Positions 4,607-35,741 of a stretch of 35,741 bases of DNA are shown here, in pieces. Origin of the DNA: Alphaproteobacteria bacterium. GTDB taxonomy: Bacteria; Pseudomonadota; Alphaproteobacteria; CAAHEQ01; UBA3637. Numbering within the stretch: position 1 is the stretch's first letter; every line of letters begins with the position of its first letter. The stretch lies in contig SUUS01000012.1 in assembly GCA_015062395.1 (NCBI GenBank), positions 1 through 35,741 of the forward strand, given 5' to 3'. Below the pieces are notes generated by a model. That model saw only the letters and a list, made by a program, of their open reading frames with translations. It was not told the origin of the DNA and did no database searches. The translations under genes were made by a program, and so were the position numbers.

Positions 4607-4786
4607 TTACTCCCCCTTTTGTTTTAATGCAATTGCTATTGCAACAGCCACCTGTTCTGCATCAGAAGAAACTGCTGTTTTACGAACGAACCAAGACATT
4701 AAGTGTATTGTCAACATTAATACGTATAAAAACGCAAAAACAGATAACATCCCAAATAATGTAATCAGTAAACCATCAAGCAACAT
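4607..4786 (-). CDS. oadG: Oxaloacetate decarboxylase gamma subunit
   Basis: 59 residues with the chosen start. One N-terminal membrane helix (LLDGLLITLFGMLSVFAFLYVLMLTIH is interrupted only by short polar spots) is followed by a short soluble tail ending in VAVAIAIALKQKGE, the alanine-rich tail typical of OadG, which holds the alpha and beta subunits together. An upstream ATG at 4813 is in frame, but GAGGGG sits 6 nt before the ATG at 4786, so the shorter form is preferred. Its TAA directly abuts the oadA ATG, which fits translational coupling. Confidence 0.85.
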   Translation of the reverse strand: MLLDGLLITLFGMLSVFAFLYVLMLTIHLMSWFVRKTAVSSDAEQVAVAIAIALKQKGE

Positions 4787-4833
4787 ATTCCCCTCATTTA
4801 TTATTCTATTCATTTAATCTTTTAACATGTTTC

Positions 4834-4842
4834 AATATATCA
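4834..4842 (-). promoter_or_regulatory. Possible extended -10 promoter for oadG-oadA-oadB
   Basis: TGATATATT on the minus strand is an extended -10 element about 50 nt before the oadG start, in the only gap (98 nt) upstream of this operon. No convincing -35 box is seen at the right distance. Confidence 0.35.
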
Positions 4843-4884
4843 TGCAAGAAAAAAACAAAAAGTTAATTTTAATACATTTATTTT

Positions 4885-6141
4885 TTAACGTTTTAACATA
4901 TCGACTAATTTTTCATATCCTATTACATGCGAAACAGGACCCAATGTTGCAAGAGTTGGCTTCCCTGAAAACAATAAATTAGCCGTTTTTATTAAGCTGG
5001 CTTTATCAACTTGATTTATGTTTTCAATTGTTTCTGCAGGAGAAATAATCCGATTATAAATTGCTAATTTTCTGGCATTTCCTTCAGCTCTGGCAGAAGT
5101 ACTTTCTTGTTTCATCAAAACATGAGCTCTTAATTGTGCTTTAGCTCGATTAATTTCAGCTTCAGTCAATGTATTTGATACGTTTAACAATTCATCACAA
5201 ACGACAGGCAACAACTCCGATACTTGTTTCTCACCTGTCCCAGCAAAAATACCAAAATTACCACTATCAGCATAAGAAGATGTAAAGGCGTAAATTGCAT
5301 AAACCAATCCCCGTTTTTCACGAATCTCTTGAAACAAACGAGAAGACATTCCTCCTCCCAAAATTGTTGTCAAAATACTTTGTGAGTAATAAAGTTCGTG
5401 ATTATAAGAAAGTCCATCAAATCCTAAAACCAAATTAACTTGTTCATTTTTCTTATTTTCACGATACTCTCCCCCTTTATAACGCGTTAATTGACTTTTT
5501 CTTTTTCCTGTTAATTTTAAATTTGTTAAAGCTTTTTGAATTGCATCAACCAAGTATGCGTGGTCGATATTCCCAGCAGCCGAAACAATAAGTCGTTGAG
5601 CTGCATATTCTTCACGCATATAATCTAACAATGTTTGACGTGAAATTGAACGAACTTTATCTGCTGTTCCTAAAATCGAACGACCAAAAGCTTGGTTTGG
5701 ATAAGCCGTTTCATGATAGTATTCAAAAACGGCCTCATCTGGAGAATCATATGTTTGACCGATTTCTTGAATAATAACCTCTTTTTCTTTTATTAATTCA
5801 TCTTCAATCATTGTTGAATTTTGAAAAATATCTGCCAAAATAGACAAAGCCAAGGGAACATCTTGCTTTAAAACCTTTACATAATAAGCAGTCACATCTC
5901 TAGACGTATAAGCATTAATAATCCCTCCAACGTCTTCAATTTGTTCTGCAATTTGAAGAGCTGTACGCGTTTTTGTTCCCTTAAAAGCCATATGCTCTAA
6001 CAGATGTGAAATACCATTGATATTTTCCTCTTCAAAGCGAGAACCAACAGAAACCCAAAACCCTAAAGAAACAGTTTCAACATCACTCATTGTATCTGTC
6101 ACGACTTGAATACCAGAATCTAATTTTGTTATCTGAACCAT
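4885..6141 (-). CDS. M16-family zinc peptidase (processing-peptidase-like)
   Basis: 418 residues. The inverted zinc motif HLLEH is at H46-E49-H50, and the third ligand E126 in IIQEI lies exactly 76 residues further, as in M16 peptidases. The N-terminal half is the catalytic domain. The C-terminal half holds the glycine-rich loop and R-x-x-x-Y region (IREKRGLVYAIYAF). The length matches the M16B single-chain form related to mitochondrial processing peptidase beta and widespread in Alphaproteobacteria. No signal peptide is visible, so it would act in the cytoplasm unless exported in another way. It lies 22 bp after the secreted protein gene upstream; its substrate is unknown. Confidence 0.9.
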   Translation of the reverse strand: MVQITKLDSGIQVVTDTMSDVETVSLGFWVSVGSRFEEENINGISHLLEHMAFKGTKTRTALQIAEQIEDVGGIINAYTSRDVTAYYVKVLKQDVPLALSILADIFQNSTMIEDELIKEKEVIIQEIGQTYDSPDEAVFEYYHETAYPNQAFGRSILGTADKVRSISRQTLLDYMREEYAAQRLIVSAAGNIDHAYLVDAIQKALTNLKLTGKRKSQLTRYKGGEYRENKKNEQVNLVLGFDGLSYNHELYYSQSILTTILGGGMSSRLFQEIREKRGLVYAIYAFTSSYADSGNFGIFAGTGEKQVSELLPVVCDELLNVSNTLTEAEINRAKAQLRAHVLMKQESTSARAEGNARKLAIYNRIISPAETIENINQVDKASLIKTANLLFSGKPTLATLGPVSHVIGYEKLVDMLKR

Positions 6142-12711: not shown

Positions 12712-13482
12712 TTATTCCTTTGACATCTTATTTAAAACAGATAAAAGCTTAACTTCATCAGCTCCAGAAATAATTTCAGTCTGATTACCCTTTACAACCA
12801 CAGTGGTCGGAGTTCCATTAATTTTATACTGTTGTGCATATTTATCTCGATTAACAATAATATGTTGTTGCAATGTTTTATCCGATAAACAAGCCCTGAC
12901 ATCACCTTTAGTCATACCTTGCAATGATGCATAAGCTGTCACGATTTCTTGAGCATTCGGCTTAAAAGCCCAATTTTCTTGATTTTCAAATAACAGATTT
13001 AAAAATTTAAAATAATTCTCTTTTTTTGCACAACGAGCCAACATAGCACCAGCCAACGCTCTGTTATCAAAAGGAAAATCAACGTAAGTCAAGAAAACTT
13101 TTCCTGTTTCAATAAAATCTTTTTCAACCTTTTTAAGTGCTTTTACATGAAAATCTGCACAATGAGAACAAGTTAAAGATGAAAAAACATACATTTTAAC
13201 AGGCGCATTTTCATCCCCCATCGTTCTGGGAGCCAACTTTGCTAAAGTAGAAACAGCGACTGGTTTATTTTCTGTTGCATTTGCAGATTTGATTATATTA
13301 AATGATAAATCCAACGGTTCATAAACATCTTCTGGAGATACAGGTGCAGAATTTTCAAAAATAACTGTTTCCCCCTTATTTGCCGTTAAACCTGGCATCG
13401 GAGTGGGCGCAACTTGATTCATATAATAAACAATACCAAAAAAAAGAAGCCCACCCAAAATAGTTAACCAAATAGATTTCAT
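12712..13482 (-). CDS. Membrane-anchored DsbA-like thiol oxidoreductase
   Basis: 256 residues. An uncleaved N-terminal membrane anchor (about 4-20) is followed by a Pro/Ala-rich linker and a thioredoxin-fold DsbA domain with the active site C105-S-H-C108 and the cis-proline loop in INGTPTTVV. It would oxidise or isomerise cysteines in periplasmic proteins; the window encodes at least two Cys-rich exported candidates. It resembles the Com1/BdbD-like DsbA proteins of Alphaproteobacteria. It heads the F0 operon under a good promoter (13511-13539), a position without obvious functional reason. AAAGGA lies 8 nt before the ATG. Confidence 0.87.
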   Translation of the reverse strand: MKSIWLTILGGLLFFGIVYYMNQVAPTPMPGLTANKGETVIFENSAPVSPEDVYEPLDLSFNIIKSANATENKPVAVSTLAKLAPRTMGDENAPVKMYVFSSLTCSHCADFHVKALKKVEKDFIETGKVFLTYVDFPFDNRALAGAMLARCAKKENYFKFLNLLFENQENWAFKPNAQEIVTAYASLQGMTKGDVRACLSDKTLQQHIIVNRDKYAQQYKINGTPTTVVVKGNQTEIISGADEVKLLSVLNKMSKE

Positions 13483-25661: not shown

Positions 25662-27809
25662 TTAAGACATCAATGAATCCAGCTGAATATCAATATATTG
25701 ATTGTTTTCTTTTTCCTTATAAGCCTTAACTTCCGAAGGTACTGCTGGTGCAGGAGGAAGTGCGACCAATTCTTTCATCGCTTCATTTTTAAAATAAAGT
25801 GGCGTTTTGGCCTGTATTGGTCTGTGATAATGGGCAGCATATAAAACTAATTGTTTTTCATTTGCCATATTTAAAACACCTGAACCACCGATAACACCAT
25901 CAGAAATCCGTTTTATACCACCACTTCTGACAAAAGGATTAACATCTTTTGCAAAACCAATCTTTCCACCATGAGATGCCTCGACAACTCGAGTTAGCTT
26001 CATAATCCCTGCTAACATTTTATCTCTTGTTTCAATGTTATTTTGCCTTTTTATAATTTTTGCAGCAACAGAACTTAAAATAACATCACAAGTATTTTCT
26101 CCATATTTAGCAGTAATTTGATGCCAGTCTTGAACACAAACTAAATAGATATTTCCTTTCGAACGACCAAAAGTCACCCCATCTGCAATAGATTGTAATT
26201 TGGGCATCCGACCGAAATCATCTAAAATAAATTCCACTGCAAAAGGACCTGCCCCACCTTCATTTTGACCTTTTTCCATCAAATATCCAGAAATCATATT
26301 GATAAACAAAGTACAAACAGAACCACCATCATTGGAAACATAAATCGTCATAGGTTTATATTGCCCTGTTTTTTCATCTTTTATCCCTCTAAAATCCTTA
26401 TAAGAAAAGTCATTCGCAGAAGTTCGCTGACGAATAGCACTGTTTTTAAAAGGCTCTATCCCACTTTGGGCCATAGATAAAACAGAAGAACGTTGTTTAT
26501 CAGGCAAAGAAAAAACTTGGTTTAATTCTAATAACGCTCTGCGACTATAGCCATAAAAGAAAATTTCATTGACCATTGTATCCAAAATACCTTGCCAGAC
26601 GTCCATTGCAACAGCATTTGGGTCACCTGCCTCTCGTCTAGCTCTTAATTCTTTTGTTGTCGCAAACATCCAGTTATTTAACATATCTAAAAGCATACCA
26701 AAAGAAGTTTCTTTTCCAATCCAATTTTTAGGTAAAGGTTCCCAAGTTCCAACAGGTACATATAAAAATTTATTCATTCGTTTTTCTTCTATTGCTTTTA
26801 TAGCCACCTGTACCTCTGGTGTTTGCTGCATTCCTTGATAATAACTTTTTAAAACCTTTAAATCTTCATCATCCAACAGATTTTTATCAATTCTTGCAAC
26901 AAAATAATCGTTGGCTTTTGCCTGTTCTACTTTATTTGCCAAATAAATTGTCAAACCAGTCAAACAAGAACGACCAGATTTTACCCAATACGGATCAGTT
27001 CCTTCTGGACCGTCAGGAATTAAAAAATTAATTAAACCATCGATATAACCATCTCGCCCCTTATGTTGTGGAGGCATATTCGCATCATTTAAAGGATTCC
27101 AACAAGGGTAATAAACCCCTTCTTGAGGATTATCTACTAACGTAAAATTCATATTATAAACAGGACCTAAAGTGGCTCGATAACCACTTGTTTTTTTCAT
27201 TAAATCGCCTGTAGGATCGTGAATAAATAAACAAGCATTATCTGCTTTTAGTATATTAGGAATAATAACACCCGTTGTTTTTCCACTGCCAGGCGCTCCT
27301 ATACAAAAAGCTGACCGAGTGTCTGGCATACGCATTTTAACGTCTTCAAAATTACCCAGATATAAATACTTTCCCGTTGCTAATCCCATATCTTTTAAGT
27401 CACTAACTCGCGCTTCTCGTCCAGAACCAAAATACTGGGGCCGATAATCGTATGGATTATAGGCCAGAAAATAAACCCAAGCCATGAAAAAAGCCAACGT
27501 TGGCAACAGTGGTAAACGCCACATAAAAAAGGATGTCCAAGTAAAATGTTTCGGTTCATTCAACCATAGATTCCACAACCATTTACCATATTCTGTCCAA
27601 ACATGAAAAGGATTATGTAAAGTTTTTTCAAAAAACGAAGAAACGACACTTAAAGAATCTGAAGAAAAACGATTTCCAATACAATATGATAACGGTAATA
27701 TCCCCAAAAGAACCACCCAAAGTATCAATAAACATACAAGCGTCCAAAAAGCTAAATACCTTAATGCTTTTTTCCGTTCTACAAAGGCATATCCCATAAC
27801 AGATTTCAT
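25662..27809 (-). CDS. VirD4/TraG-type IV secretion coupling protein
   Basis: 715 residues. Two N-terminal membrane helices (about 18-42 and 98-117) are followed by a P-loop ATPase: Walker A GAPGSGKTTG (171-180) and Walker B FILDDFGRMP near residue 530, plus DWHQITAKYG further on. This is the hexameric motor that brings substrates to a type IV secretion channel. No other VirB gene, relaxase or transfer origin is in the window, so the rest of the system must be elsewhere if present. The C-terminal 60 residues are Pro/Ala/Lys-rich. AAGGG lies upstream of the ATG, 3 bp after the pentapeptide gene stop. Confidence 0.9.
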   Translation of the reverse strand: MKSVMGYAFVERKKALRYLAFWTLVCLLILWVVLLGILPLSYCIGNRFSSDSLSVVSSFFEKTLHNPFHVWTEYGKWLWNLWLNEPKHFTWTSFFMWRLPLLPTLAFFMAWVYFLAYNPYDYRPQYFGSGREARVSDLKDMGLATGKYLYLGNFEDVKMRMPDTRSAFCIGAPGSGKTTGVIIPNILKADNACLFIHDPTGDLMKKTSGYRATLGPVYNMNFTLVDNPQEGVYYPCWNPLNDANMPPQHKGRDGYIDGLINFLIPDGPEGTDPYWVKSGRSCLTGLTIYLANKVEQAKANDYFVARIDKNLLDDEDLKVLKSYYQGMQQTPEVQVAIKAIEEKRMNKFLYVPVGTWEPLPKNWIGKETSFGMLLDMLNNWMFATTKELRARREAGDPNAVAMDVWQGILDTMVNEIFFYGYSRRALLELNQVFSLPDKQRSSVLSMAQSGIEPFKNSAIRQRTSANDFSYKDFRGIKDEKTGQYKPMTIYVSNDGGSVCTLFINMISGYLMEKGQNEGGAGPFAVEFILDDFGRMPKLQSIADGVTFGRSKGNIYLVCVQDWHQITAKYGENTCDVILSSVAAKIIKRQNNIETRDKMLAGIMKLTRVVEASHGGKIGFAKDVNPFVRSGGIKRISDGVIGGSGVLNMANEKQLVLYAAHYHRPIQAKTPLYFKNEAMKELVALPPAPAVPSEVKAYKEKENNQYIDIQLDSLMS

Positions 27810-28907: not shown

Positions 28908-30665
28908 CTACTTATTGTACAACTTACGTTCTTTATAACTTGTATGCAATAAATGATGTGATCTATTAGACAGTGGTGTTCCCAAAAATTCATCATACAA
29001 CTTCTTGATATCTGGATTTTGGTGAGAACAACGTTTTGCTGAATTTTTATCATCAGTCATCAAACCAGCCATACGTGCCTTGCGAATTTCATCCGTCACA
29101 CCCAATGGCTGTCCGCCACCACCGATACATCCGCCTTCACAAGCCATAACTTCAATAAAGTGATATGGAGGTTCTTCTCCTTTTTGCAAAGCGTCTTTAA
29201 CCTTTTCAAGCAATGCTTGAACATGTCCAATACCATGAGCAACTGCGATTCGAACTTCCTTACCAGCCAAATTCATTGTCATTTCTTTGATACCTTTATC
29301 AAGACCTAAAATAGGCTTAATTTCCAAAGCATCGTCAGCCATTTCCTGACCTGTCACAACATAATGAACTGTACGTAAAGCAGCTTCCATAACACCACCT
29401 GTAAAACCAAACACGGTTGCAGCTCCTGTATAAGAACCCAATGGAGAATCTGCCCCTTCATCTGGTAAGTTTGCAAAGTCGATACCTGCTTGCTTAATCA
29501 TACGAGCTAACTCACGAGTTGTCAAAGAAACATCAACATCTTGGAAACCTGAAGAGAACATTTCTTCACTTCTTAAAATTTCAAACTTTTTAGCTGTACA
29601 TGGCATAATCGAAACAACACGCATTTTGTTTGTTTCAACTCCAATTTTATCTGCATAATAAGTTTTTGACAGTGCACCAACAATCTCATGAGGTGATTTA
29701 CAGGAAGAAAAATGTGGTATCATTTCTGGATAATACTTTTCCATATAATCAACCCATGCAGGACAGCAAGAAGTAATCATAGGTAATACACCTTCACCCT
29801 TTGTAAAACGTTCGATAAACTCACTTCCTTCTTCCATAATTGTCACATCCGCCCCAAAGTTCGTATCAAAAACGGCATCAAACCCTAAACGACGTAAAGC
29901 TGCATAAATTTTTCCTGTAGTAATTGTTCCTGGTGCGAAACCAAAAGCCTCACCAATAGCGACACGAACTGCTGGCGCGATTTGAACAACACAATACTTT
30001 TCTTTATCTTGCAACATATCCCAAACATATTGAGTATCATCACGTTCCGTCAAAGCACCTGTTGGACAATGCGCTGTACATTGACCACATTTAATACATG
30101 GGCTATCGACCAAATTTTCATCTGCGGCAGGAGAAATATGCGTCTTAATTCCTCTTTGCAACATAGACAAAGCCCAAACATTTTGAGTATTTTGACAAAC
30201 TTCAACACAACGTCCACACAAAATACATTTTCTTGGATCTAAAACAATACTTTTTGTTGTATCGTCAACAGGTTGTTCTTCAGATGTTGGTGTGATATTT
30301 TCAAACTCTGTATCTCTGATACCAAAATCAGAAGCCAATTTACGTAATTCACAAGTATCGTTTTTCAAACAAGTCAAACATTCATTTGGATGCTTGCTTA
30401 AAGTCAACTTTAAAACTGTCCTGCGTGCATCAATAATATCTGCATCACGAGTAATAACTTCCATACCTTCTGCAACTGGTGTACAACAAGAACGCAACAT
30501 TTTTCCATTTACTTTAACGATACAAATACCACATGCAGCAGTTGCTGGTAAATCTGGATGATGACACAAAGTTGGAATTTTAATTTGTACAGACTTTGCA
30601 GCATCCAAAATAGAAGTACCTTCAGGAACTTCAACAATGTGAGAATCAATTGTTAATCTAACCAT
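28908..30665 (-). CDS. hndD: [FeFe] hydrogenase catalytic subunit (HndD/HydA type)
   Basis: 585 residues. The N-terminal [2Fe-2S] ferredoxin domain has C34, C45, C48 and C60; a His-Cys3 [4Fe-4S] site follows (HPNECLTCLKNDTC), then two [4Fe-4S] clusters (CILCGRCVEVC and CIKCGQCTAHC). The H-cluster motifs are L1 TSCCPAW (298-304), L2 MPCTAKK (354-360) and L3 ACEGGCIGGGGQP. The small-subunit-like C-terminal segment ends with HLLHTSYKERKLYNK. It reduces protons to H2 or the reverse. With the two NuoE/NuoF-like genes upstream this is the NAD(P)-linked multimeric type. The maturases HydE, HydF and HydG are not in the window. Confidence 0.95.
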   Translation of the reverse strand: MVRLTIDSHIVEVPEGTSILDAAKSVQIKIPTLCHHPDLPATAACGICIVKVNGKMLRSCCTPVAEGMEVITRDADIIDARRTVLKLTLSKHPNECLTCLKNDTCELRKLASDFGIRDTEFENITPTSEEQPVDDTTKSIVLDPRKCILCGRCVEVCQNTQNVWALSMLQRGIKTHISPAADENLVDSPCIKCGQCTAHCPTGALTERDDTQYVWDMLQDKEKYCVVQIAPAVRVAIGEAFGFAPGTITTGKIYAALRRLGFDAVFDTNFGADVTIMEEGSEFIERFTKGEGVLPMITSCCPAWVDYMEKYYPEMIPHFSSCKSPHEIVGALSKTYYADKIGVETNKMRVVSIMPCTAKKFEILRSEEMFSSGFQDVDVSLTTRELARMIKQAGIDFANLPDEGADSPLGSYTGAATVFGFTGGVMEAALRTVHYVVTGQEMADDALEIKPILGLDKGIKEMTMNLAGKEVRIAVAHGIGHVQALLEKVKDALQKGEEPPYHFIEVMACEGGCIGGGGQPLGVTDEIRKARMAGLMTDDKNSAKRCSHQNPDIKKLYDEFLGTPLSNRSHHLLHTSYKERKLYNK

Positions 30666-30675
30666 TTTAAACTCC

Positions 30676-32448
30676 TTAATTATTCTTTGTGTTAATCGTA
30701 CAACCAGTCACAACTTTATCAGCCTTATTTTCTGCATCTGGCTCATTGCCATCTTGCAATAAAGCATCGTATTCTTCTTTAAAGAAACGCATTGTTGATA
30801 AAACTGGGTTTGGAGCAGTTTGTCCTAAACCACACAAAGAAGCTTTTTTCATTGCTTCGCCAATTTCTTTAATTTTCTCCATGTCAGCTTTAGTCCCCTT
30901 ACCATCTGCAATTTTATTCATTAATTGCAACATTTGGTACCCACCAATTCGACATGGTGCGCATTTACCACAAGACTCATCAACGGTAAATCCTAAATAG
31001 AATTTGGCAATTTCAACCATGCTATCATCTTGGTCCATAATAATCATACCACCAGACCCCATCATAGAGCCGATTTTTTTCAATTCTTCATAGCATAAAG
31101 GCATATGCAATTCACTGGCAGGAATAACTCCACCAGAAGGACCACCTGTCTGAACGGCTTTAAATGGCTTTCCAGAACTGGTTCCACCACCGACATCGTT
31201 AACCATTTCACCAACAGTTGTTCCCATTGGAACTTCAACTAAACCAGAATGTTTAACTTTTCCAGTAATCGCAAAAACCTTTGTTCCTTTTGATGTTGCA
31301 GTTCCAACTTCGCTAAACCATTCTGGACCATTGACCATAATTGGAGCAATGTTTGCCAGTGTTTCCACGTTATTAATCGCAGTTGGTTTATCGAACAAAC
31401 CTTTTTGTGTTGGATATGGAGGACGTGGGTGTGGAGTTCCACGTTTACCTTCCAATGATGCCAACAAAGCAGTCTCTTCACCACAAACGAAAGCGCCTGC
31501 ACCATATCGAATATCAGCCATAAAATTGAAGTCTGTTCCAAAGATGTTGCGCCCCAAAATGCCGTATTTTTTAGCTTGTTTAATCGCTAATTCCATACGA
31601 GCAATCGCCAAAGGATATTCTGCACGAATATAGAACCACCCATTCGTTGCACCCGTTGCGTAAGCGCCAATCATCATACCTTCCAAAACAGCATGAGCAC
31701 CACCACCCAAAATACAAGAATCCATATAAGCCCCTGGGTCACCTTCATCGCCATTGCAGACCATGAACTTTTCACCATCTACTAGTGGAGATTTAGAAAG
31801 CATTTCCCACTTAATCCCTGTTGGGAAACCTGCGCCACCACGACCACGCAATCCACTGCGTTTAATAATATCCAAAACTTCTTCTGGTTTCATGGATAAT
31901 GCTTTTATCAATCCTTGATAGCCCCCATTAGCAATGTATTCGCCCAAATCTTCTGGATCAGAATGCCCTAATAAACGCAAAACGATTTTACGTTGTTTTG
32001 TAAAGAACGGTAAATCCAAAGATAATTCTTTATTTTTCAGGAAATCTGATAAACGCAATTCTTCTTCGACTGGCTGCTTTAATGCAGGTGCGACATGTTC
32101 TGCTGCAATAATTCTGGCAACATCTGGTGTCACATGCTCATAAAGCATTGGCTTTCTGCCTTTGATTTCAATTCTAGCCAAAGGACCAGAAGCGCACAAC
32201 CCCATACAGCCTGTACAAACCATACGGACATCTTTTTCCAGCCCCAAAGCAGCTAAACTTTCTTTAAAAGCGTCTATAACGCTTGATGCGCCACCAGAAT
32301 GGCAGCTTGTAGCATCGCAAGTATAGATAGATGCCTTATAATCTTTGACGCGTTCTTTAAATTCATCCCCAAGTTTTAATAAATTTTCTTTTTGAGTACG
32401 CCCCAAAGCTTTTAATTTTTCAATTTGTTCTTGTGTTAACTCTGCCAT
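30676..32448 (-). CDS. hndC: NuoF-like hydrogenase subunit (HndC/HydB type), short form
   Basis: 590 residues. The N-terminal thioredoxin-like [2Fe-2S] domain has CDATSC and CTGCMGLC; the NuoF core has FMN and NADH sites (GLRGRGGAGFPTG, CNGDEGDPGAYMD, GAGAFVCGEETAL). A [4Fe-4S] site follows (ESCGKCAPCRIGG and C-x-L-GQTAPNP). The chain stops about 35 residues later. HydB-type proteins usually continue with a 2x[4Fe-4S] ferredoxin domain; that domain is absent here. It oxidises or reduces NAD(P)H at FMN and passes electrons to the catalytic subunit. 3 bp after hndA. Confidence 0.93.
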   Translation of the reverse strand: MAELTQEQIEKLKALGRTQKENLLKLGDEFKERVKDYKASIYTCDATSCHSGGASSVIDAFKESLAALGLEKDVRMVCTGCMGLCASGPLARIEIKGRKPMLYEHVTPDVARIIAAEHVAPALKQPVEEELRLSDFLKNKELSLDLPFFTKQRKIVLRLLGHSDPEDLGEYIANGGYQGLIKALSMKPEEVLDIIKRSGLRGRGGAGFPTGIKWEMLSKSPLVDGEKFMVCNGDEGDPGAYMDSCILGGGAHAVLEGMMIGAYATGATNGWFYIRAEYPLAIARMELAIKQAKKYGILGRNIFGTDFNFMADIRYGAGAFVCGEETALLASLEGKRGTPHPRPPYPTQKGLFDKPTAINNVETLANIAPIMVNGPEWFSEVGTATSKGTKVFAITGKVKHSGLVEVPMGTTVGEMVNDVGGGTSSGKPFKAVQTGGPSGGVIPASELHMPLCYEELKKIGSMMGSGGMIIMDQDDSMVEIAKFYLGFTVDESCGKCAPCRIGGYQMLQLMNKIADGKGTKADMEKIKEIGEAMKKASLCGLGQTAPNPVLSTMRFFKEEYDALLQDGNEPDAENKADKVVTGCTINTKNN

Positions 32449-32450
32449 TT

Positions 32451-32951
32451 TTATACTCCTTGTTCTGTGGATTGCATTTTTTCACGCCATTCAGCAATAA
32501 TTTTTGGAACATCTATATCTGTCACCTTGCCGTAAGTTTTTCCATTGACAACCACAACAGGAGCCAAACCACAACAACCTAAACAGCGAACAATCTGCGT
32601 ATAGAACAGACCATCTGGAGTCGTCTGTCCTTCTGCAACACCAAGATGTTTTTCCAACGCTTCAATAACCTGTGGAGCTCCCTTAATATGGCATGCCGTT
32701 CCATCACAAACAGAAATAACCACTTTACCTGGAGCTTTTAATTTAAAATAGTTATAAAACGTTAAAACCGAATAAATTTGAGCCATAGGAACACCTAATT
32801 CCTTTGAGGTCACTTCCATAGCGCTCCATGGAACGTATCCAAAAGCCCCCTGTATTTCATGCAAGGCCATAATCAATGCACCACGCTTTGATTTCCACTT
32901 GACCAACATTTTTTTTGTATCTTCTAGGATTTTTTCTTTTTCTTCAGCCAT
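32451..32951 (-). CDS. hndA: NuoE-like [2Fe-2S] hydrogenase subunit (HndA/HydC type)
   Basis: 166 residues, the full NuoE length: a helical N-terminal part (KRGALIMALHEIQGAFGYVP) and a thioredoxin-like domain holding one [2Fe-2S] cluster through CDGTAC and CLGCC. First gene of the three-gene operon, with AAGGAG 8 nt before the ATG. It is the electron-carrying partner of the NuoF-like subunit. Confidence 0.94.
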   Translation of the reverse strand: MAEEKEKILEDTKKMLVKWKSKRGALIMALHEIQGAFGYVPWSAMEVTSKELGVPMAQIYSVLTFYNYFKLKAPGKVVISVCDGTACHIKGAPQVIEALEKHLGVAEGQTTPDGLFYTQIVRCLGCCGLAPVVVVNGKTYGKVTDIDVPKIIAEWREKMQSTEQGV

Positions 32952-35107: not shown

Positions 35108-35134
35108 AAAAAACAGGGGCCATAATAGCCCCTG
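35108..35134 (-). terminator. Terminator of the Cys-pair protein gene
   Basis: A 7-bp GC-rich stem CAGGGGC / GCCCCTG with a 7-nt loop, followed on the minus strand by six T residues (35113-35108). It faces the terminator at 35075-35099. Confidence 0.8.
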
Positions 35135-35156
35135 CCTAACTTTTTCTATAATTCAT

Positions 35157-35741
35157 TTAACATGATTTACCGTTACTTGGATCCCCACTATCAGAACAAC
35201 GACAGTCTTCAAAGACAACCTGCCCATTAACTTCAGCCCCATAACAATACTTGTTACCTTCATACCTTCCGTATTCTGTAGATGAACCATTATAATTTAC
35301 AGACCAGTTATTGGCACAGTAAAAAGCATTGCCATTCTTTTGTACAGATGCATCTGCATCAATGGTATAGTGGCTTGGTGAATAAGCTTGAAAACTACCA
35401 CCAGACGCTGCAACACAACATACTCCGTTTACAGCTCCAACAGGATTTGGATTACGATAATCTTCAACAACAACCATTCCTGTGCCATCAATAGATGGAA
35501 ATGAGGAATAAAGTTCAACTGATTGACAACAAACGTTATTTTGAGGATTGTCATATCCATCTAGATAATTAGGGACACTTTTATAGCCCGTTGGACAACA
35601 AGTATAATAAGGATTTGTTTCATTAGAATAAACCGTTCCATCACAACAAAGGGCACTTTCTCCATCTGGCGTATAAGCATCTTGATACGAATCTTTATAT
35701 GTTTTCTTTGGACAACAAATTTCGCGACCATTAAATCCTCG
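35157..35741 (-). CDS. Cysteine-pair-rich protein, 3' part only
   Basis: The frame is open from the window edge (35741) to the TAA at 35157, about 194 codons, with the 5' part outside. An internal ATG at 35477 is not the start, because the same frame continues upstream with the same composition. The protein is rich in Cys, Tyr, Asn, Gly and Asp. Cys-Cys pairs recur: ICCP, LCCD, TCCP, VCCQ and VCCV, spaced 23, 16, 23 and 37 residues. Single and C-x-C cysteines (CRCSDSGDPSNGKSC) end the chain. Such a pattern implies disulfides and so export to periplasm or surface. No family recognised; a repetitive surface or adhesin-like protein is a guess. Confidence 0.8.
   Translation of the reverse strand, partial: RGFNGREICCPKKTYKDSYQDAYTPDGESALCCDGTVYSNETNPYYTCCPTGYKSVPNYLDGYDNPQNNVCCQSVELYSSFPSIDGTGMVVVEDYRNPNPVGAVNGVCCVAASGGSFQAYSPSHYTIDADASVQKNGNAFYCANNWSVNYNGSSTEYGRYEGNKYCYGAEVNGQVVFEDCRCSDSGDPSNGKSC

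What the first reader, a model, noticed from the sequence alone, without database searches (positions are those of the whole stretch)
35157..35741. Repetitive Cys-Cys protein running off the window
Seen: five Cys-Cys pairs in the last 194 codons with spacings 23, 16, 23 and 37, plus C-x-C at the end, in a Tyr/Asn/Gly/Asp-rich chain. The 23-16-23 alternation suggests a 39-residue unit. No common domain recognised. Inference: a disulfide-rich surface protein, possibly large and repeated in the genome, and a possible substrate for the DsbA-like protein at 12712.
Basis: partly seen in the sequence, partly recalled or inferred. Interest (0 to 1): 0.6.

Follow-up and report, generated by a model that had tools for sequence, protein, structure and literature searches.

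The report
Surface-loop protein of an adhesin-like family
The cut-off gene is the tail of one member of a large family of disulfide-rich, exported bacterial proteins, many fused to a pilus subunit, that keep one rigid scaffold while their loops differ almost completely from copy to copy, which suggests that this uncultured alphaproteobacterium carries a repertoire of different surface-binding proteins.

Summary
In detail: a 194-codon minus-strand frame has five CC pairs (spacings 23, 16, 23, 37), more than shuffling gives, and is followed by a terminator. The 39-residue unit is not: the true unit has three CC pairs (54 aa in a paralogue), and the window holds one copy plus a C-terminal domain.

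The window is a whole contig. It breaks where its sequence is repeated; 19 of 80 contig ends in this genome lie in this gene family. Paralogues are large (to about 830 aa), exported, and carry either a type IV pilin N-terminus plus serine linker or a Sec signal. The genome has an R64/TCP-like type IVb pilus locus.

The C-terminal domain is undescribed: absent from Pfam, NCBIfam and PDB sequences, and seen only in this GTDB family (5 of 43 genomes). Across 24 members its cysteine framework is fixed, while loops between anchors are about 7-28% identical among paralogues of one genome. Orthologues in two sister species keep their loops, so the repertoire is inherited, not hypermutated.

Best reading: a tip- or surface-displayed adhesin with a disulfide-braced beta-meander and diversified binding loops, working like PilV. 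Adhesion, disulfides and the missing N-terminus are inferred.

The parts
35157..35741 (-). 3' end (194 codons plus stop) of a large exported Cys-rich gene; 5' part missing because the contig ends in a sequence shared with a paralogue
35636..35741 (-). 106 bp identical to the end of contig C19, where a second paralogue with a different C-terminus branches off
35526..35717 (-). one dicysteine repeat unit with its flanking CC pair (residues 9-72; CC at 9, 32, 48, 71), same unit as the 54-aa repeats of paralogue C4end
35160..35585 (-). undescribed C-terminal domain (about residues 53-194) with fixed cysteines and variable loops, found in 5 of 43 genomes of the GTDB family
35415..35438 (-). framework motif GAVNGVCC (consensus GAxNGxCCGGY)
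35313..35336 (-). framework motif NGNAFYCA (consensus NGGxYYCA)
35160..35204 (-). C-terminal framework motif CRCSDSGDPSNGKSC (consensus CxCSxxGDPxNGxxC)
35111..35137 (-). terminator-like hairpin just after the stop codon
12712..13482 (-). DsbA/thioredoxin-fold oxidoreductase (active site CSHC); possible but unproven disulfide catalyst for this family

Best explanation
The window holds the C-terminal end of one member of a paralogous family of exported, cysteine-rich surface proteins in an uncultured, small-genome alphaproteobacterium. Members are built from (i) either a type IV pilin-like N-terminus followed by a Cys-rich region and a serine or Gly/Ser linker, or a plain Sec signal peptide; (ii) a variable number of dicysteine (CC) repeat units; and (iii) one of several C-terminal domains. 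In the domain of the window gene a cysteine framework holds a chain of beta hairpins, and the segments between the framework motifs differ almost completely between paralogues. The likely mechanism is that the pilin-type members are processed by the prepilin peptidase and incorporated into, or at the tip of, the type IVb pilus encoded on contig C22; the Ser/CC stalk holds the C-terminal domain away from the cell; and each paralogue's loops bind a different ligand (a glycan, fibre or cell surface). Shown: the family, the architecture in relatives, the pilus genes, the framework/loop pattern and its conservation between sister species. Inferred: that the missing 5' part of this gene is of the pilin type, that the cysteines form disulfides, and that the function is adhesion.
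For: Paralogues and size. Contig ends in the family, with exact 127-bp overlaps between contig ends. Pilin-type N-termini with the motif GRSMIEMLGVLAVIGVLS on Cys-rich proteins in the same genome. Two short pilins with nearly the same N-terminus on C33. Pilus locus on C22 (TcpQ, secretin, PAP_PilO, T2SSE, T2SSF) and one prepilin peptidase. Pilin-type proteins that carry the C-terminal domain of the window gene: G017 C56 (683 aa), G015 C4 (1164 aa), own genome C32 start (421 aa). Sec-type proteins with the same domain in G006, G015 and G022. The start of the window protein (with the few residues that C19 adds before it) resembles the segment that precedes the repeats in the pilin-type C19 protein and in C21 and C32 (2, 2 and 0 of 1000 shuffles reach the score; 32 of 1000 for C16). 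Framework against loops. High synonymous divergence throughout but very different nonsynonymous divergence. Loops kept between orthologues. Predicted all-beta domain. PilV precedent: PMC9045228.
Against: The 5' part of this gene is not in the assembly, and most relatives that carry this C-terminal domain are Sec-type, not pilin-type. No ligand, binding fold or lectin domain was recognised. The pilin N-terminus scores below Pfam's gathering cut-off for N_methyl, so its assignment rests on the motif, on the downstream pilin-like region and on near-identity to the short pilins. No DsbB was found. The genus-mate G001 has none of these domains, so the family is accessory.
Confidence: 0.58

Rival explanations
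1. The window gene is a Sec-secreted, pilus-independent surface or matrix protein: a disulfide-rich structural coat of galaxin type, with loops that drift because they are little constrained.
For: Most relatives with this C-terminal domain are short proteins with Sec signal peptides; the own genome also has a Sec-type member (C14). Dicysteine repeats are typical of animal matrix proteins (PMC2726143), and one paralogue passes the Pfam Galaxin_repeat cut-off as a stretch (30.7 bits).
Against: The segment before the repeats matches the pilin-type paralogues. Loops are kept at 89-100% between orthologues in sister species, with dN/dS of 0.3 in one pair but 1.0 in another, so constraint on the loops is suggested rather than proved.
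Confidence: 0.27
2. The family is an antigenic-variation system: loops change rapidly by recombination between paralogues, to evade host immunity or phage.
For: Identical blocks (434 bp between C14 and C33; 106-127 bp between several contig ends) sit inside otherwise different genes, so segments are exchanged or recently duplicated. Loops are hypervariable among paralogues.
Against: Orthologues in two sister species keep the same loops. Synonymous divergence is similar in loops and framework in G015 and G006, so cassette swapping is not the main source there. No reverse transcriptase, and the loops differ in length, so a diversity-generating retroelement is unlikely. Only one genome per species could be compared, so variation within a species is untested.
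Confidence: 0.1
3. The frame is a chance open frame or an assembly artefact at a contig end.
For: It lies at a contig end in repeated sequence.
Against: The domain is conserved in 24 members and 5 genomes with the cysteines fixed. The profile has the window itself as one of its five rows, so its own score proves nothing, but the hits in G006, G015 and G017 are independent of the model. A terminator follows the stop.
Confidence: 0.02

Closest known systems
PilV minor pilins of R64/IncI-type type IVb pili (TP114, R64)
   Same: Pilin N-terminus shared across variants with different C-terminal domains; type IVb pilus machinery of the R64 type (PAP_PilO, secretin, T2SSE, T2SSF). In TP114 the PilV C-termini are adhesins with different specificities (PMC9045228).
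   Different: Here the variants are separate genes scattered over the genome, not inverted cassettes behind one gene; long Ser and CC-repeat stalks; some relatives use Sec signals; shufflon recombinase and sites were not looked for; adhesion not shown.
Galaxins and galaxin-like proteins of corals (Pfam PF24748)
   Same: Exported tandem repeats with two or three CC pairs per unit; coral Amgalaxin-like 2 has a 41-residue unit with three (PMC2726143).
   Different: Weak sequence match (one paralogue over the cut-off as a stretch, the window gene none); longer unit with other spacing (15-16-23); bacterial; pilin fusion; extra C-terminal domain. Common origin is not shown.
Variable proteins of diversity-generating retroelements
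   Same: Fixed scaffold with variable, Ser/Thr/Tyr-rich segments.
   Different: No reverse transcriptase in the genome; loops vary in length; loops kept between orthologues; no C-type lectin fold recognised.

Membership tests
Type IVb pilin-like minor pilin (PilV-like) | class III prepilin signal and hydrophobic N-terminal helix on the window gene itself | not testable with these tools
   5' part missing from the assembly; present on paralogues and on relatives with the same C-terminal domain
Type IVb pilin-like minor pilin (PilV-like) | type IVb pilus assembly genes in the same genome | tested here: met
   TcpQ, secretin, PAP_PilO, T2SSE, T2SSF on C22; prepilin peptidase on C1
Type IVb pilin-like minor pilin (PilV-like) | variants made by a shufflon (Rci recombinase, sfx inverted repeats) | not tested
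   variants are found as separate loci; recombinase and sites were not searched for
Galaxin repeat (PF24748) | score of the window protein over the Pfam gathering cut-off | tested here: not met
   window protein: no match up to E = 1; paralogue C14 30.7 bits as a stretch but 21.5 for the whole protein against a cut-off of 28; the same search rings in 3 of 14 control genomes
Galaxin repeat (PF24748) | tandem repeats with two or three CC pairs each | tested here: met
   met by the paralogue C4end: period 54, three CC pairs per unit; the window itself holds one unit
Diversity-generating retroelement target | reverse transcriptase in the genome | tested here: not met
   no RVT_1 match (bin of 40 contigs, completeness 100)
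Known metal-binding or other Cys-rich domain family | match to a curated domain | tested here: not met
   Pfam and NCBIfam
Known fold (OspA-like single-layer sheet, barrel meander, Rhs) | clear structural match to a solved structure | tested here: inconclusive
   best Foldseek E 0.7; VIA Z at most 7.2, mixed barrels and OspA

The most novel reading that the evidence does not exclude
A lineage of uncultured alphaproteobacteria carries a genome-encoded, inherited repertoire of recognition proteins: one disulfide-braced beta scaffold with hypervariable loops, shown either on a type IVb pilus or as free secreted protein, each paralogue with its own ligand, comparable in logic to a receptor repertoire.
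Probability: 0.3. Interest if true: 0.78.

Novelty: new variant of a known kind. Interest (0 to 1): 0.58.

Why it matters
If right, a poorly known lineage of reduced-genome alphaproteobacteria invests much of a 1.36-Mb genome in a family of displayed binding proteins, and the C-terminal domain is a new disulfide scaffold that tolerates almost complete loop replacement. It gives a concrete set of proteins with which to ask what these uncultured bacteria attach to. It also explains why this assembly breaks where it does: the genes share repeats, so they are cut in short-read genomes and hard to annotate.

Tried and rejected
39-residue unit: rejected by self-comparison. Known domains: none in Pfam or NCBIfam; no PDB sequence relative. 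Structure search: Foldseek best E 0.7-1.3 and VIA Z up to 7.2 spread over unrelated barrels and OspA; taken as no evidence either way. Diversity-generating retroelement: no reverse transcriptase. Common origin with animal galaxins: left open, the match is weak and the search rings in control genomes. Finding the missing 5' part: only C19 shares the end, upstream contig not in the bin. Spread: in 385 genomes drawn evenly from the class only the own genome has the domain; that draw held few members of its family. Literature on pilin/Cys-rich proteins in such bacteria: nothing relevant. Host of the lineage: relatives are MAGs titled 'uncultured Alphaproteobacteria bacterium'; a look at a horse-gut paper gave no link, so the habitat was not established.

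Full report
What is there. The frame 35157-35741 on the minus strand encodes 194 residues and is open at the window's edge. It has five CC pairs with spacings 23, 16, 23 and 37, against a shuffled mean of 1.08 (P = 0.0013), and is followed by a terminator-like hairpin on its own strand. The window is the whole of contig C10 of a 1.36-Mb genome in 40 contigs, so the gene runs off the contig, not only off the window.

Why it runs off. The end of C10 shares 106 identical bases with the end of C19, after which the two genes differ. Other contig ends in this genome overlap by exactly 127 bp inside the same gene family (C21/C32, C26/C33, and C32 with the inside of C19), as expected from a de Bruijn assembly with k = 127 (inference). 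Counting from the listed loci, 19 of the 80 contig ends lie in this family. The missing upstream contig is not in the bin.

The repeat. In the paralogue at the end of C4 the repeat has a period of 54 residues and three CC pairs. Window residues 19-72 align to one such unit with score 78.5; shuffles that keep the cysteines in place average 22.2 with sd 10.7 and never reach it in 2000.

The family in this genome. Searches with the window protein, with the C21 protein and with the pilin-like N-terminus found members at many places. Several run to 600-830 aa with 56-83 cysteines and 14-30 CC pairs. Two kinds of N-terminus occur: a pilin-like one (GRSMIEMLGVLAVIGVLS) followed by a Cys-rich region and long serine tracts, and a Sec signal (C14). 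Two short pilins with nearly the same N-terminus lie on C33. A pilus locus on C22 has TcpQ, secretin, PAP_PilO, T2SSE and T2SSF, and one prepilin peptidase is on C1. The Sec signals were read by eye; no signal-peptide predictor was available.

The C-terminal domain. Residues of about 53-194 belong to a domain that matches no Pfam or NCBIfam model and no PDB sequence. A profile finds it in 5 of 43 genomes of the same GTDB family, in 3 of 13 genera. In a draw of 385 genomes from the class only the own genome has it, but that draw held few members of the family. Named relatives are MAGs titled 'uncultured Alphaproteobacteria bacterium'. Their habitat was not established; any statement that this is a gut organism would be a guess.

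Architecture of complete relatives. The same domain ends pilin-type proteins in G017 (683 aa) and G015 (1164 aa, running off a contig inside the pilin-like part) and in the own genome on C32 (421 aa). It also ends many short Sec-type proteins in G006, G015 and G022. The start of the window protein resembles the segment that precedes the repeats in C19, C21 and C32 (2, 2 and 0 of 1000 shuffles reach the score; C16 32 of 1000). This favours the pilin type for the missing 5' part but does not settle it.

Framework and loops. In 24 aligned members the cysteines at window positions 32, 33, 71, 72, 108, 109, 142, 166, 180 and 194 are present in all, or all but one, of the members that reach there, and the motifs GAxNGxCCGGY, NGGxYYCA and GDP are strongly conserved. 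Between them, paralogues of one genome (G022) are 28, 11, 15 and 7% identical in the four loop segments against 88% in the front part and 73% in the first motif. Nonsynonymous differences are 0.60-0.62 per site in loops and 0.07-0.26 in the front part and anchors, while synonymous differences are high everywhere (0.49-0.78). In G015 and G006 synonymous values are alike in loops and framework; in G022 the front part is lower (0.49 against 0.74), which may reflect some homogenisation. Loop boundaries were drawn after seeing the alignment, and loop alignments are uncertain because lengths differ, so these figures are descriptive and rough.

Stability. Three orthologous pairs between G006 and G015 keep their loops at 89, 90 and 100%. 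Loop dN/dS is about 0.3 in one pair and 1.0 in another; the third is nearly identical. So variants are inherited as lineages, and rapid hypermutation is unlikely at that distance. Identical blocks between paralogues in the own genome (up to 434 bp) show that some exchange or recent duplication also happens.

Structure. The window model has mean pLDDT 71, with the last 60 residues at about 83-92. A Sec-type relative from L060 reaches 84.4 and is all beta. Structure searches gave nothing decisive.

Mechanism. The best-supported account is an exported adhesin that works like PilV of R64-type pili, whose C-terminal variants are adhesins with different specificities (PMC9045228). The dicysteine stalk resembles galaxins in arrangement (PMC2726143), but membership is not shown. 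The DsbA-like protein at 12712 is a plausible catalyst of disulfides; no DsbB was found and VKOR was not tested.

Limits. The 5' part is missing; function is inferred from architecture; only one genome per species was available; the novelty claim rests on Pfam, NCBIfam, PDB and an open-access paper library.

Noticed in passing
L034 (G000 C4:1-5000), Ser run in the frame 3-2225: An uninterrupted run of 244 serines coded by a mix of AGT, TCT, TCG, TCA, AGC and TCC, so it is not a simple trinucleotide expansion.
   Followed up: partly
L042 (G000 C12), around 2085-2130: A pilin-type Cys-rich gene is split into two frames, with a frameshift relative to the C19 paralogue just after the pilin part. 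Broken gene, phase variation or assembly error were not told apart.
   Followed up: partly
L056 (G000 C33, match at 4696-5016): Another giant pilin-type protein (open frame 1870 aa) with CxxC/EGF-like repeats instead of CC repeats.
   Followed up: no
L121:960-3515 (G000 C33): Complete 852-aa pilin-type protein with two serine tracts and a different C-terminus; no Pfam domain over cut-off.
   Followed up: no
window 25662-27809 (-): Long frame that looks like a VirD4/TraG-type coupling protein; read by eye from the translation, not tested.
   Followed up: no
window 28908-32951 (-): Three frames that look like an iron-only, NADH-linked hydrogenase set, by eye from the translations, which would suggest an anaerobic life.
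   Followed up: no
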